Part shown: in pieces, positions 31,356 through 35,088 of the stretch
Layout of the letters: each line of letters opens with the position of its first letter
Numbering within the stretch: the stretch's first letter is position 1
Assembly (NCBI GenBank): GCA_028282685.1
Contig: JANQHK010000052.1
Span: forward strand, 1 to 53,088
From: Phycisphaeraceae bacterium
GTDB taxonomy: Bacteria > Planctomycetota > Phycisphaerae > Phycisphaerales > Zrk34
Direction: 5' to 3'
Length of the DNA: 53,088 nt
Translations under genes and position numbers: made by a program
The notes under the pieces: model-generated
What the model saw: only the letters and a program-made list of their open reading frames with translations
Told to the model about the DNA's origin: nothing
Databases searched by the model: none

Positions 31356-31883
31356 ATGAAACACCTTCCCGAGCAACTCGGCGACTGGATCGAGCGACAG
31401 GATTTAGGCGGCTGGGCGATGTTGCTGGGCGGGCTGGTCGTGATCGCGCTGGTCTACCTCACGCCGGCCTACCTGATCAACCGATCGTTGGAAACGCAGC
31501 GGGATGTTCTGGCCGAGCAGTGCGAGCAGATCACCCAATGCAGCGAGCGCTACGATCAGTTCGTTCAGGCCTGGCAGGCCAACGATGCCCTGCTGGTGCA
31601 GCGCTGGGCATGGCACCAGTTGCACCTCAAGCCCGTGGGCGCCACACCGCTGGACGACCGCCTGCCCTCCGAACCGGGCGCGGCGCTGACGCCGATCGAA
31701 CTGGTCGGCGCCGATTCGCAGCTATCGATCGATTCCCCGGCCACCGTGGCGGAACTGCCGGACACGCGATTGATCCGCCTGACGACCGGTCGCCAGCGTT
31801 ACGGGCTGCTGGGTCTGGGCGGCGGCTTGTGCGTGGCGGGCTTGCTGATGTCCCTGCGCCCCGGGCGTAACACATCTGAGTAA
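31356..31883 (+). CDS. two-TM membrane protein of unknown function
   Basis: 175 residues. TM1 is about residues 20-42 (WAMLLGGLVVIALVYL), TM2 about 149-167 near the C-terminus. The intervening 105 residues face outside the cytoplasm or within it depending on topology, with a Glu/Gln-rich helix (ETQRDVLAEQCEQITQ) and Pro/Asp-rich loop. GC content and codon use are typical of the chromosome. Not a family I can name. It abuts the AT-rich restriction-modification island, so its 3' end marks the insertion boundary. Confidence 0.75.
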   Translation: MKHLPEQLGDWIERQDLGGWAMLLGGLVVIALVYLTPAYLINRSLETQRDVLAEQCEQITQCSERYDQFVQAWQANDALLVQRWAWHQLHLKPVGATPLDDRLPSEPGAALTPIELVGADSQLSIDSPATVAELPDTRLIRLTTGRQRYGLLGLGGGLCVAGLLMSLRPGRNTSE

Positions 31884-31910
31884 TTGCCAATTAAAGACAT
31901 GCGAAATGAC

Positions 31911-31938
31911 TTTTCAGACGTAATAAATTGCGTATACT
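31911..31938 (+). promoter_or_regulatory. candidate promoter for the restriction-modification operon
   Basis: TTTTCA (31911-31916), 16-bp spacer, TATACT (31933-31938), in the AT-rich leader of the methyltransferase gene. Sequence before the methylase holds no control-protein gene. Confidence 0.5.
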
Positions 31939-31983
31939 ATATTTATTGTTCGCAGGCAAGTTAGGCAATGGAGTGCATTAGCT

Positions 31984-33150
31984 ATGACAGTTATTCCCCC
32001 ATCATTAGCGCAATCAACGCTATGGGACAACACATCTTCTAACCATTGCCCAGACGAAAATCCGAAATACTTACAAGAACAGCTAATCACATATATTGGC
32101 AATAAGCGATCTCTATTGCCATTGGTTCACGACGCTCTTGTTCATGTCACAAAAAGACTAAATCGTCACTCATTAACGATATTTGATGGCTTTGCCGGCT
32201 CTGGGATAGTATCACGCTACTTTAAGCAATATTCAACTTATTTAATTTCTAATGACTTTGAAAAGTACGCAGAGGTCATTGGGCAATGTTACCTAACGAA
32301 TATTTCAGAAATTGACATGTCAGCCCTGAGGGATTCGCACGAATACCTTCAAGCAAATGTCCACAATAACAATTTACCAGAAGGAATAATACGCCGCCTT
32401 TACTCTCCTGAAGATGACAAGAACATAAAATCGGGCGAACGCGTATTCTATACTAACTATAACGCAACTACTCTCGATAACTACCGCAGACTTATAGACA
32501 ACATACCGTATGATCACAGAATATTTTTCCTAGCACCCCTGATGTCCCAAGCATCTGTCCACGCAAACACATCCGGTGTGTTTAAGGGTTTTTACAAAAA
32601 CTCTAAAACCGGCATCGGTCAGTTTGGCGGCAATGGACGCAACGCCTTAACCCGTATTATGCAAGACATCAATCTTCCCTTCCCCGTGTTTAGTAATTAT
32701 GAATGCCAATGGGAGGCGCATTGCAGTGACACAAACACTCTTACACGAAACCTTCGAGACCTAGATATTGCATATTACGACCCCCCATATAATCAACATC
32801 CATACGGGTCAAACTATTTCATGTTAAACCTATTACTGGAATACCAAGAACCAACTGACGTTAGTAGGGTTTCAGGTATTCCATCTAATTGGCAACGATC
32901 AAGTTACAACAAGCGGAAATACGCCCTGGAAGCCATACAGGATTTATTTGAGCACACAGACGCAAGATTTATTTTACTTTCCTACAACGATGAAGGTTTT
33001 ATTTCGCGAACTGAAATAGAAGATATCATGCGTCATTTTGGTTCTGTAAGCGTTTACGAAACCCCCTATAATACGTTTCGCGGCTCCCGCAACCTAAAGG
33101 ACAGAAAGATAAGTGTTACTGAACACTTATTCCTAGTCGAAAAAAAATAA
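31984..33150 (+). CDS. D12-class (alpha) DNA N6-adenine methyltransferase
   Basis: 388 residues. Motif order marks the D12/alpha class: motif X ITYIGNKRS (35-43), motif I IFDGFAGSG (66-74) for AdoMet binding, a target-recognition segment, then motif IV DPPYNQHPYGSNYF (266-279) for catalysis. It would methylate adenine, most likely in the target of the adjacent endonuclease, protecting host DNA. It is markedly AT-richer than flanking genes (about 40% G+C by eye in the stretch I counted, versus above 60% around it), with tat/aat-rich codons, so it was probably acquired. A GGAG site is 10 nt before the ATG. The endonuclease follows after 17 nt. Confidence 0.93.
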   Translation: MTVIPPSLAQSTLWDNTSSNHCPDENPKYLQEQLITYIGNKRSLLPLVHDALVHVTKRLNRHSLTIFDGFAGSGIVSRYFKQYSTYLISNDFEKYAEVIGQCYLTNISEIDMSALRDSHEYLQANVHNNNLPEGIIRRLYSPEDDKNIKSGERVFYTNYNATTLDNYRRLIDNIPYDHRIFFLAPLMSQASVHANTSGVFKGFYKNSKTGIGQFGGNGRNALTRIMQDINLPFPVFSNYECQWEAHCSDTNTLTRNLRDLDIAYYDPPYNQHPYGSNYFMLNLLLEYQEPTDVSRVSGIPSNWQRSSYNKRKYALEAIQDLFEHTDARFILLSYNDEGFISRTEIEDIMRHFGSVSVYETPYNTFRGSRNLKDRKISVTEHLFLVEKK

Positions 33151-33167
33151 TCCACGGGGCACATCCA

Positions 33168-33881
33168 ATGGCACGAAAACATCAACTGCGTAAGCAAAGA
33201 GCAGGCACAGTAATCAACTTAACCTCTTCTAAGCAAGAAACTCGGCTTGGAAAGGCACTTCACAAAGTCGAAGAAATAATATTAAATGAATTTGACATTA
33301 CATTAAAACATGACAAAACGTGGAAATTAACGGATATAATTAGACGACTTAGGGAAGCCTTTCCAAAGGTTGAATTTCACTGTCATCACAACACATCAAG
33401 TATCAGACCTGACGGCGGCATACTGTCGATCTGTCGCAATAATGACCACGAGTTATACCCAATCTTAATAACTGAAGTAAAAAATCAAGGAACAAACGAC
33501 TTGCGTCTCGAAGAAGGAAAGCCGAAGCAAGCCAAGGGCAATGCGATTGAGCGCCTTGGAAAAAATGTCATTGGTATACGGACGGCAATGCGCTCTGAAG
33601 GTATCGTACCTTTTGTTTGTTTCGGGGACGGATGTGACTTTGCACCTGATTCATCAATACTTGATCGCGTTTCAACCATTGCCATGTTCGGAAACCTGAA
33701 TGCTACGCATTTGAAAGACGTAGGACCACATAATTATTTCGACAGAGGAAGCTTTTATTTCAGACATCAGCCCTGGACCGAAGAAGAGATGATTGAAGTT
33801 ATGTCTGAAATTGCTCGACGCAGCATATACTACTATTTCTCAAAGTACGGAAAAGACGCCTTCATCAAAGTCGCTGATTAA
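33168..33881 (+). CDS. EcoRI-family type II restriction endonuclease
   Basis: 237 residues. It has the EcoRI catalytic set: IRPDGGIL with Asp82, ITEVKNQG with Glu103 and Lys105 (EcoRI D91, E111, K113), and GNAIERLGKN (124-133), matching EcoRI GNAIERSHKN, which holds the base-contacting Asn, Ala and Arg. The same contacts predict cleavage at GAATTC. At least four GAATTC sites are in this window (6883, 26692, 36527, 41012), so the host must be protected. It is shorter than EcoRI (277). AT-rich like its partner. No C-protein is seen. Confidence 0.93.
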   Translation: MARKHQLRKQRAGTVINLTSSKQETRLGKALHKVEEIILNEFDITLKHDKTWKLTDIIRRLREAFPKVEFHCHHNTSSIRPDGGILSICRNNDHELYPILITEVKNQGTNDLRLEEGKPKQAKGNAIERLGKNVIGIRTAMRSEGIVPFVCFGDGCDFAPDSSILDRVSTIAMFGNLNATHLKDVGPHNYFDRGSFYFRHQPWTEEEMIEVMSEIARRSIYYYFSKYGKDAFIKVAD

Positions 33882-33929
33882 CCGCTATTGAATTGATCTC
33901 ACTGTATAGCGACGCTGGCCGGGTCGTGA

Positions 33930-33935
33930 TACACT
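33930..33935 (+). promoter_or_regulatory. -10-like TACACT before dprA
   Basis: TACACT ends 7 nt before ATG 33943, with no ribosome-binding site between, as in the leaderless pattern seen at other genes. No clear -35. Confidence 0.35.
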
Positions 33936-33942
33936 GATCCGC

Positions 33943-35088
33943 ATGGGGACCGAACTTCTCGATGCACGTCTGAAGCTGGGCATGGTCAGCGGGCTGGGTC
34001 CGTTGCTGACGCGCCGTCTGGTTGAGCACTTCGGCGATGCCGTGGCCGCCACCGGCGCCACCGCCGCACAACTGCAACGCATCGACGGCATCGGCGCCGC
34101 CACCGCCCGATCGATCCGCGAGCAACTCGACCAATGCGATATCGATCGTGAAAAACAACTCATCACCGAACACGAAGTCCGCGTGATCGGCATCGACGAT
34201 GAAGATTACCCGGCCTTGCTGCGACACATTCCCGATCCCCCCACGCTGCTCTACGTACGGGGCCAACTGGATCGCACCGATGCGGTGGCCCTGGCGGTGG
34301 TGGGCTCGCGTCGGTGCACGGCGTACGGGCGCGAGCAAGCCGACCGGATTGCCGCGGCATGCGCGCAGGCGGGACTGACGATTGTTTCGGGCGGAGCGCG
34401 CGGGATCGATTCCGCCGCACACCGGGCCGCCCTGCGGCTGGAGGGGCGGACGCTGGTCGTCCTGGGTTGCGGATTGGCCCGGGTCTATCCGCCGGAGAAT
34501 GCCGAACTGTTCAGCGAGATTGCCGACGGGCATGGGGCGATCGTCAGCGAACTGCCGATGACCGCTCCACCGATCGCGGAAAACTTTCCCCGTCGCAACC
34601 GCATCATCTCGGGCCTGTCGCTGGGCGTGCTGGTTGTGGAAGCGGCACTGCGCTCCGGCGCCCTGATTACCGCGCGCCTGGCCGCCGAGGAACACCACCG
34701 CGAAGTGATGGCCCTGCCGGGCCGGGTCGATTCCGCGGCGAGTGTCGGCTGCCACCGCATCATCCGCGAGGGCTGGGCGAACCTGGTCACCAACGCCGCC
34801 GACATCCTCGATTGCCTCGGTGAAACCGGCGCTGCCCTCCGCGGAGCGATGGAAGAGCGGGCCGAGACCGAGCAGCAAGCTGACGAGCAACTCTCGCTGG
34901 AAAACGCCGGCCTGAGTCGAGAACAGACCGATCTGCTGGCCAAGCTCGGCGGAGATGAGTTGGATTTCGATCGACTGGCCGAGCGCACCGGCCTGCCGGT
35001 GGCTATGATCCAATCGCACCTGACGATGTTGCAACTGCGCGGTCTGGTCGAGCGCGTTCCCGGAAATCGCGTGCGACGCAAACGCTGA
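33943..35088 (+). CDS. dprA: DNA-processing protein DprA
   Basis: 381 residues. A helix-hairpin-helix-like N-terminus (LQRIDGIGAATARSI) is followed by the Rossmann domain with VVGSRRCTAYG, SGGARGIDSAAHRAAL and LPMTAPPIAENFPRRNRIISGLS. The C-terminal winged-helix domain (LAERTGLPVAMIQSHLTMLQLRGLVER) is present, as in DprA proteins of the longer type. It binds single-stranded DNA and loads RecA during transformation. It begins right after the restriction island and has normal chromosome composition. Confidence 0.95.
   Translation: MGTELLDARLKLGMVSGLGPLLTRRLVEHFGDAVAATGATAAQLQRIDGIGAATARSIREQLDQCDIDREKQLITEHEVRVIGIDDEDYPALLRHIPDPPTLLYVRGQLDRTDAVALAVVGSRRCTAYGREQADRIAAACAQAGLTIVSGGARGIDSAAHRAALRLEGRTLVVLGCGLARVYPPENAELFSEIADGHGAIVSELPMTAPPIAENFPRRNRIISGLSLGVLVVEAALRSGALITARLAAEEHHREVMALPGRVDSAASVGCHRIIREGWANLVTNAADILDCLGETGAALRGAMEERAETEQQADEQLSLENAGLSREQTDLLAKLGGDELDFDRLAERTGLPVAMIQSHLTMLQLRGLVERVPGNRVRRKR

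What the first reader, a model, noticed from the sequence alone, without database searches (positions are those of the whole stretch)
31984..33881. AT-rich island with an EcoRI-like nuclease and a D12-class methylase
The endonuclease retains the EcoRI catalytic and base-contact residues (IRPDGG, ITEVKNQG, GNAIER), so GAATTC is predicted. The partner is an alpha/D12 methyltransferase; to my knowledge RsrI's partner is of beta class and that of EcoRI is unlike it, so this family of nucleases may recruit unrelated methylases. Composition and codon use (much lower G+C) show recent transfer.
Basis: partly seen in the sequence, partly recalled or inferred. Interest (0 to 1): 0.7.

Follow-up and report, generated by a model that had tools for sequence, protein, structure and literature searches.

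The report
EcoRI-like restriction system with D12 methylase
A horizontally acquired DNA-cutting and DNA-protecting gene pair whose cutter is a cousin of the laboratory enzyme EcoRI but whose protector belongs to an unrelated methylase family; the exact DNA site it recognises cannot be read safely from the sequence.

Summary
Window 31984-33150 encodes a D12-class adenine methyltransferase and 33168-33881 an EcoRI-family nuclease, both about 41% G+C in a 62% G+C contig. In five relatives of the same family the upstream gene abuts dprA with nothing between, so the pair is an insertion. The pair is not a one-off: all 15 loci found, counting the window, keep the D12 partner. In a tree of 23 chosen nucleases these form one group (99/98), and nuclease and methylase distances agree (Mantel r 0.88). 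So this methylase was taken up once, long ago; across the nuclease family at least three unrelated partners occur (D12; PF13651 as in EcoRI; PF01555 as in RsrI). The GAATTC prediction is weaker than stated: catalytic and inner AATT residues are kept, but the residues before GNAIER differ (EcoRI MAA, here QAK), a loop is gone, and only one of EcoRI's Arg200/Arg203 remains. Site counts did not decide between GAATTC and CAATTG.

The parts
31984..33150 (+). D12-class (alpha-order) N6-adenine DNA methyltransferase, 388 aa; partner of the nuclease
   Evidence: PF02086 E 1.8e-15; PADLOC type II MTase model E 1.5e-113; 32-54% identical D12 MTases beside every related nuclease
32191..32205 (+). AdoMet-binding motif FAGSG (residues 70-74)
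   Evidence: alignment A5; motif name recalled
32779..32790 (+). catalytic motif DPPY (residues 266-269), C-terminal to the AdoMet motif as in alpha-class enzymes
   Evidence: invariant in 15 of 15 rows of A5; class definition recalled
33168..33881 (+). EcoRI-family restriction endonuclease, 237 aa, 17 nt after the MTase stop
   Evidence: PF02963 E 2e-14; phmmer to EcoRI chain 1ckq E 1.8e-11; model matches EcoRI Z 17.7, rmsd 3.5-3.6 over 209
33402..33419 (+). IRPDGG: catalytic Asp82, equivalent of EcoRI D91
   Evidence: alignments A2, A4; EcoRI catalytic residues D91, E111, K113 from PMC4081073 passage
33468..33491 (+). ITEVKNQG: catalytic Glu103 and Lys105, equivalents of EcoRI E111 and K113
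33534..33536 (+). Lys123, directly before GNAIER; Ala139 in all 6 EcoRI/RsrI-type plasmid nucleases, Lys in all 11 D12-partnered rows of the tree
33537..33554 (+). GNAIER: equivalents of EcoRI N141, A142, E144, R145 that read the inner AATT
   Evidence: contacts from PMC4081073 section 20 and PMC3806743 passages
33666..33668 (+). Arg167, the single arginine matching EcoRI R200 (hhalign) or R203 (MAFFT)
31884..33927 (.). inserted segment between the upstream gene and the native dprA promoter-like motif; edges approximate; a target repeat was not found
   Evidence: no insert in five same-family genomes, where 24-61 nt separate the upstream gene's stop from the dprA match; repeats
31356..31883 (+). 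upstream host gene of unknown function, 175 aa, no Pfam match
   Evidence: homologues directly upstream of dprA in L016, L017, L019, L020, L021; Pfam none
33928..33935 (+). GATACACT, -10-like motif of dprA, seen in similar form before dprA in relatives
   Evidence: sequences printed
33943..35088 (+). dprA, host gene downstream of the insertion
   Evidence: PF02481 E 6.7e-75; match in 13 of 13 genomes searched

Best explanation
A complete, laterally acquired Type II restriction-modification system of a distinct EcoRI subclade that pairs a short EcoRI-fold nuclease with a D12 adenine methyltransferase. Inferred mechanism: the methyltransferase marks an adenine of a short palindrome with an AATT core in the host DNA, and the nuclease, as a dimer with the EcoRI active site (D82, E103, K105), cuts unmarked incoming DNA at that site. 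The gene order (methylase first, same strand) would let protection precede cutting. GAATTC is the single most likely site (about one half, in my judgement), but another outer base pair, CAATTG included, is open. Shown: family membership, catalytic and inner-contact residues, co-inheritance of the two genes, insertion between two host genes. Inferred: activity, target, defence role.
For: Pfam, PADLOC, PDB and fold matches; catalytic and GNAxER residues conserved across the clade; the two genes adjacent in 15 of 15 loci, even where their orientation differs (L009, L012); distances of the 13 pairs with intact nucleases agree, Mantel r 0.879, p 0.0001; insertion seen against five relatives; carried on a 6-kb plasmid in Paracoccus marcusii, where the record's annotation already names the two genes; absent from the 60 other relatives and 391 other genomes of the phylum searched.
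Against: No activity or methylome data. Nothing sequence-based fixes the outer base pair. Site counts show no clear avoidance of GAATTC in this genome. In two relatives the nuclease is broken or truncated (L010, L011), so the nuclease can be lost or the MAG sequence is faulty there. L012's Asp in the PD motif is Glu. The structural model is weak just where Arg167 lies (block pLDDT 57 for residues 161-170, under 50 at 172-192).
Confidence: 0.75

Rival explanations
1. One reading: a plain EcoRI isoschizomer, GAATTC cut by the nuclease and methylated by the D12 enzyme. (A narrower form of the best explanation.)
For: Inner-contact residues and catalytic residues kept; Ala122 is kept at EcoRI A138, whose change to Thr is titled promiscuous in PDB 2oxv; hhalign pairs Arg167 with EcoRI R200, which PMC3806743 says contacts G1; scaled GAATTC O/E is below that of CAATTG in G000, G423, G429, G430 and G432.
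Against: M137 and A139, invariant in the 6 EcoRI-type rows, are Q and K here; the loop before them is missing; MAFFT pairs Arg167 with R203 instead, leaving R200 as Ile; G422, with O/E 0.83 for GAATTC against 0.47 for CAATTG, points the other way and G424, G425, G428 are about level.
Confidence: 0.5
2. A changed outer base pair: Lys123 sits where MunI has the arginine that reads its outer pair (recalled), so the site could be CAATTG or another NAATTN palindrome.
For: Lys directly before GNAxER in all 11 D12-clade rows and in the 4 cyanophage-group rows, Ala in all 6 EcoRI-type rows; MunI is among the solved folds matched, Z 7.1, rmsd 5.1 over 160; only one of R200/R203 present.
Against: The MunI match is far weaker than EcoRI (Z 17.7) and at a level the tool calls common; the MunI contact is from memory because the paper is not held; CAATTG is not clearly avoided in this host (O/E 0.92).
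Confidence: 0.25
3. A remnant or regulatory pair: the D12 enzyme acts as an orphan-like methylase and the nuclease is inactive or being lost.
For: Nuclease broken in L010 and cut short in L011 while the methylase stays open.
Against: Nuclease intact here and in 12 of the 14 other loci with catalytic residues conserved; distances track those of the methylase.
Confidence: 0.08

Closest known systems
R-M pair of Paracoccus marcusii plasmid pCP157_17 (NZ_CP065909.1)
   Same: EcoRI-family nuclease 60% identical and D12 methylase 45-46% identical, same order, adjacent
   Different: on a 6-kb plasmid; target not known to me; only the record's annotation was seen
EcoRI (E. coli plasmid, here pU90-3, L029)
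   Same: EcoRI fold, catalytic residues, GNAIER; about 26% identity
   Different: partner is PF13651, with no similarity to the window methylase; nuclease gene first; longer recognition loops; MAAGNAIER, R200 and R203
RsrI, via its relative on Acinetobacter plasmid pHZE33-1-6 (L033)
   Same: EcoRI-family nuclease with methylase gene first
   Different: partner is PF01555, a relative of the RsrI methylase (1eg2, E 3.2e-108), unrelated to D12 by BLASTP
LraI (Lactococcus raffinolactis)
   Same: EcoRI-like nuclease, experimentally GAATTC (passages of PMC5896346)
   Different: its methylase is called EcoRI-like by its authors; nuclease gene listed first
MunI
   Same: AATT core; EcoRI-like fold; basic residue before GNAxER (recalled)
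   Different: only Z 7.1 to the model, no sequence match in the PDB profile search

Membership tests
EcoRI nuclease family (PF02963) | profile score over the curated cut-off | tested here: met
   53.8 bits against 22
EcoRI nuclease family (PF02963) | PD...(E)xK catalytic residues and GNAxER | tested here: met
   D82, E103, K105, G124-N125-A126-E128-R129
EcoRI isoschizomers (GAATTC) | outer G:C contact segment as in EcoRI (M137, A138, A139, R200, R203) | tested here: inconclusive
   A138 kept, M137 and A139 changed, one of the two arginines kept, which one depends on the aligner
EcoRI isoschizomers (GAATTC) | cleavage at G/AATTC and protection by the partner | not testable with these tools
   needs an assay or a methylome
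EcoRI isoschizomers (GAATTC) | avoidance of GAATTC in hosts (supporting sign only) | tested here: inconclusive
   scaled O/E 0.72 in this genome, 0.53-1.11 in eight other clade hosts; palindrome medians of the same genomes 0.48-0.92
D12 / alpha-class adenine methyltransferase (PF02086) | profile score over the curated cut-off | tested here: met
   57.8 bits against 22
D12 / alpha-class adenine methyltransferase (PF02086) | AdoMet motif, then recognition region, then DPPY | tested here: met
   FAGSG at 70-74, DPPY at 266-269; order criterion recalled
Type II R-M system | separate nuclease and methylase genes kept together | tested here: met
   15 of 15 loci
Type II R-M system | same sequence specificity of both enzymes | not testable with these tools
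   no activity data
MunI-type specificity (CAATTG) | basic residue before GNAxER reads the outer pair | tested here: inconclusive
   Lys123 present; role in MunI recalled, paper not held; fold match weak

The most novel reading that the evidence does not exclude
The D12-partnered nucleases are an EcoRI-fold subclade that has changed the outer base pair of the AATT-core site (for example CAATTG), so that the change of methylase family and the change of specificity went together; the cyanophage nucleases with the same QAKGNAIER would share it.
Probability: 0.3. Interest if true: 0.6.

Novelty: new variant of a known kind. Interest (0 to 1): 0.35.

Why it matters
EcoRI is the textbook restriction enzyme. 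The set assembled here gives a clean case of one nuclease family with at least three unrelated methylase partners, the D12 one stable throughout its branch, and a subclade with natural changes exactly in the recognition segment. Testing one member's target would show whether EcoRI-fold specificity has shifted in nature; PMC4081073 section 20 says that mutation of base-contacting residues in EcoRI in general costs activity without changing specificity.

Tried and rejected
Chance or artefact: rejected, two intact ORFs with significant profile matches in a contig whose flanks are host-like.

Fresh recruitment of the methylase in this genome: rejected by the conserved pairing and the tree.

GAATTC avoidance as a test: the raw ratio GAATTC/CAATTG looked striking in G429 (125/1165) and G432 (140/1022), but after correction with pentamer and tetramer counts from samples the O/E was 0.53 and 0.54 in genomes whose palindrome median is 0.48, so I do not count it as avoidance. 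Whole-genome O/E values are scaled from samples of 75-407 kb and are rough.

Target from the methylase's relatives: more distant D12 relatives on plasmids sit beside riboflavin genes (Acinetobacter), another MTase (Psychrobacter), a second MTase and an AlwI-family nuclease (Companilactobacillus) and an IS21 element (Sulfurospirillum); none fixes a target. The methylase profile matched no PDB chain at 1e-5.

Insertion signatures: only short imperfect repeats, no convincing target duplication; promoter-like sites no more than in shuffles.

Sequence search of phages gave no match and one viral scan with the single sequence gave none; the alignment query then found 21 viral loci.

Print: five searches listed no paper on an EcoRI-family nuclease with a D12 partner, by title and start of abstract; REBASE could not be searched, so I claim no priority.

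Full report
What is there. Two ORFs on the + strand, 31984-33150 (388 aa) and 33168-33881 (237 aa), 17 nt apart. The first matches PF02086 (D12 adenine methyltransferase, E 1.8e-15), the second PF02963 (EcoRI, E 2e-14), both above Pfam's cut-offs. The PF02963 match ends at residue 162 of 237, so the C-terminal third is diverged. Both genes are about 41% G+C (GC3 0.40 and 0.39) between flanks near 62% (GC3 of four neighbouring genes 0.74-0.83). They are the only copies in the genome.

Insertion. Downstream lies dprA. In five same-family genomes (loci L016, L017, L019, L020, L021) a homologue of the upstream gene 31356-31883 is followed by dprA after 24-61 nt with no R-M genes between; in L018 and L022, also of the family, no homologue of the upstream gene was found. 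A -10-like GATACACT stands just before dprA at 33928-33935 and similar motifs precede dprA in several relatives, so the insertion seems to end between 33881 and 33928 and to leave dprA's own start region whole. PF02963 was found in none of 60 other relatives and none of 391 other genomes of the phylum (the two sets share genomes). Transfer is therefore well supported. 'Recent' rests on composition alone; in 12 of the 13 D12-paired loci measured, window included, both genes are lower in G+C than both flanks, L004 being the exception, though the window's contrast is the largest.

The clade. A scan of genome contigs gave 11 relatives (42-66% best-segment identity) from MAGs named Poriferisocius, Acidimicrobiaceae/Acidimicrobiia, Poribacteria, Kiritimatiellae, Chloroflexi, Proteobacteria and an unnamed bacterium. 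A 6-kb Paracoccus marcusii plasmid and two viral contigs, L034 and L035, add three. With the window, 15 of 15 loci carry a D12-type methylase next to the nuclease: Pfam was run on six (window, L005, L009, L010, L012, L027), the other nine were judged by BLASTP to the window methylase at 50% identity or more. In L009 and L012 the methylase is convergent on the other strand and only 32-36% identical. L010's nuclease is interrupted and L011's is cut short. Pairwise distances of the other 13 nuclease and methylase pairs correlate (Mantel r 0.879, p 0.0001). In a tree of 23 chosen EcoRI-family nucleases the 11 D12-partnered rows form one group (99/98, 99% of bootstrap trees), with warnings about long branches, L012 above all.

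Three partners. On plasmids, EcoRI-family nucleases of E. coli, Klebsiella, Leuconostoc and Rhodococcus sit beside methylases annotated as the EcoRI family; PF13651 was confirmed for the E. coli and Rhodococcus ones. The Acinetobacter one sits beside a PF01555 methylase that matches the solved RsrI methylase at E 3.2e-108. The window methylase has no BLASTP similarity to either (best E 0.34 and 0.48). No partner is annotated for the Staphylococcus rostri one. That EcoRI's and RsrI's methylases differ is known from before (recalled).

Specificity. Kept: D82, E103, K105 (EcoRI D91, E111, K113; PMC4081073 passage) and GNAIER, whose EcoRI equivalents read the inner A:T pairs (PMC4081073 section 20; PMC3806743 passages). 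Changed: in six EcoRI-type rows M137, A139, R200, D202 and R203 are invariant; here positions 137-139 read Q-A-K, about eight residues before them are missing, and only Arg167 remains for R200/R203. hhalign pairs it with R200, MAFFT with R203. PMC3806743 says R200 contacts G1 and R203 a phosphate, so this ambiguity bears directly on the outer base pair. The AlphaFold model (mean pLDDT 73) matches EcoRI at Z 17.2-17.7 and MunI at Z 7.1 but is weak around Arg167. I recall that MunI, CAATTG, reads its outer pair with an arginine directly before GNAxER; the paper is not held. Lys123 at that place in all 11 D12 rows makes a changed outer pair a fair rival.

Site counts. GAATTC occurs 388 times and CAATTG 535 times in this genome. 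Scaled with word counts from samples, O/E is 0.72 and 0.92, palindrome median 0.77. In eight other clade hosts sampled of eleven (G422-G425, G428-G430, G432) GAATTC O/E runs from 0.53 to 1.11 and CAATTG from 0.47 to 1.12. This does not decide. G001, a relative without PF02963, shows GAATTC as its lowest palindrome, so such a low count can arise from something else.

Verdict. A complete, laterally gained Type II R-M system by all sequence signs; a member of the EcoRI nuclease family and of the D12 methylase family; a distinct, widely spread subclade rather than a one-off; target with an AATT core likely, GAATTC about one half likely. No paper on the pairing was listed in five searches, while public annotation already names such a pair on the Paracoccus plasmid, so the kind is known and the variant is under-described at most. 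Papers: of PMC5896346, PMC3806743, PMC3039593, PMC11473606 and PMC6256690 I saw passages; of PMC4081073 passages and section 20; all others only as search listings.

Noticed in passing
L036-L053 (viral contigs); e.g. L036 207-881 and 878-1501, L037 2242-2913: Cyanophage-like contigs (a psbD-like ORF precedes the nuclease in L037; my reading of the sequence) carry an EcoRI-family nuclease with QAKGNAIER, followed by a short methyltransferase-like ORF (phrog_799, E 1.3e-46 in L036).
   Followed up: partly
L045 678-1931 (same in L046 4944-6197): One 417-aa ORF joins an EcoRI-like nuclease (PF02963, E 6.5e-20) to a methyltransferase-like part (phrog_799, E 4.6e-47): a single-chain EcoRI-type R-M candidate in a viral contig.
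   Followed up: partly
L038-L040, L048, L049 (viral contigs): A second phage group, PRQSMGNGIER where its segment was printed, with no methylase recognised next to the nuclease by BLASTP.
   Followed up: no
G001 (same family as the host): GAATTC is the lowest of 55 testable palindromic hexamers (36 in the genome, scaled O/E 0.24) although no PF02963 gene is found there.
   Followed up: no
L010 6001-6701; L011 6001-6651: Nuclease interrupted in L010 and truncated with a changed tail in L011 while the methylase stays open.
   Followed up: no
window 33943-35088: The R-M pair sits directly before dprA, a gene for handling incoming DNA; no relative of the window's flanking genes was found in the 14 other clade loci, so the position looks incidental.
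   Followed up: partly
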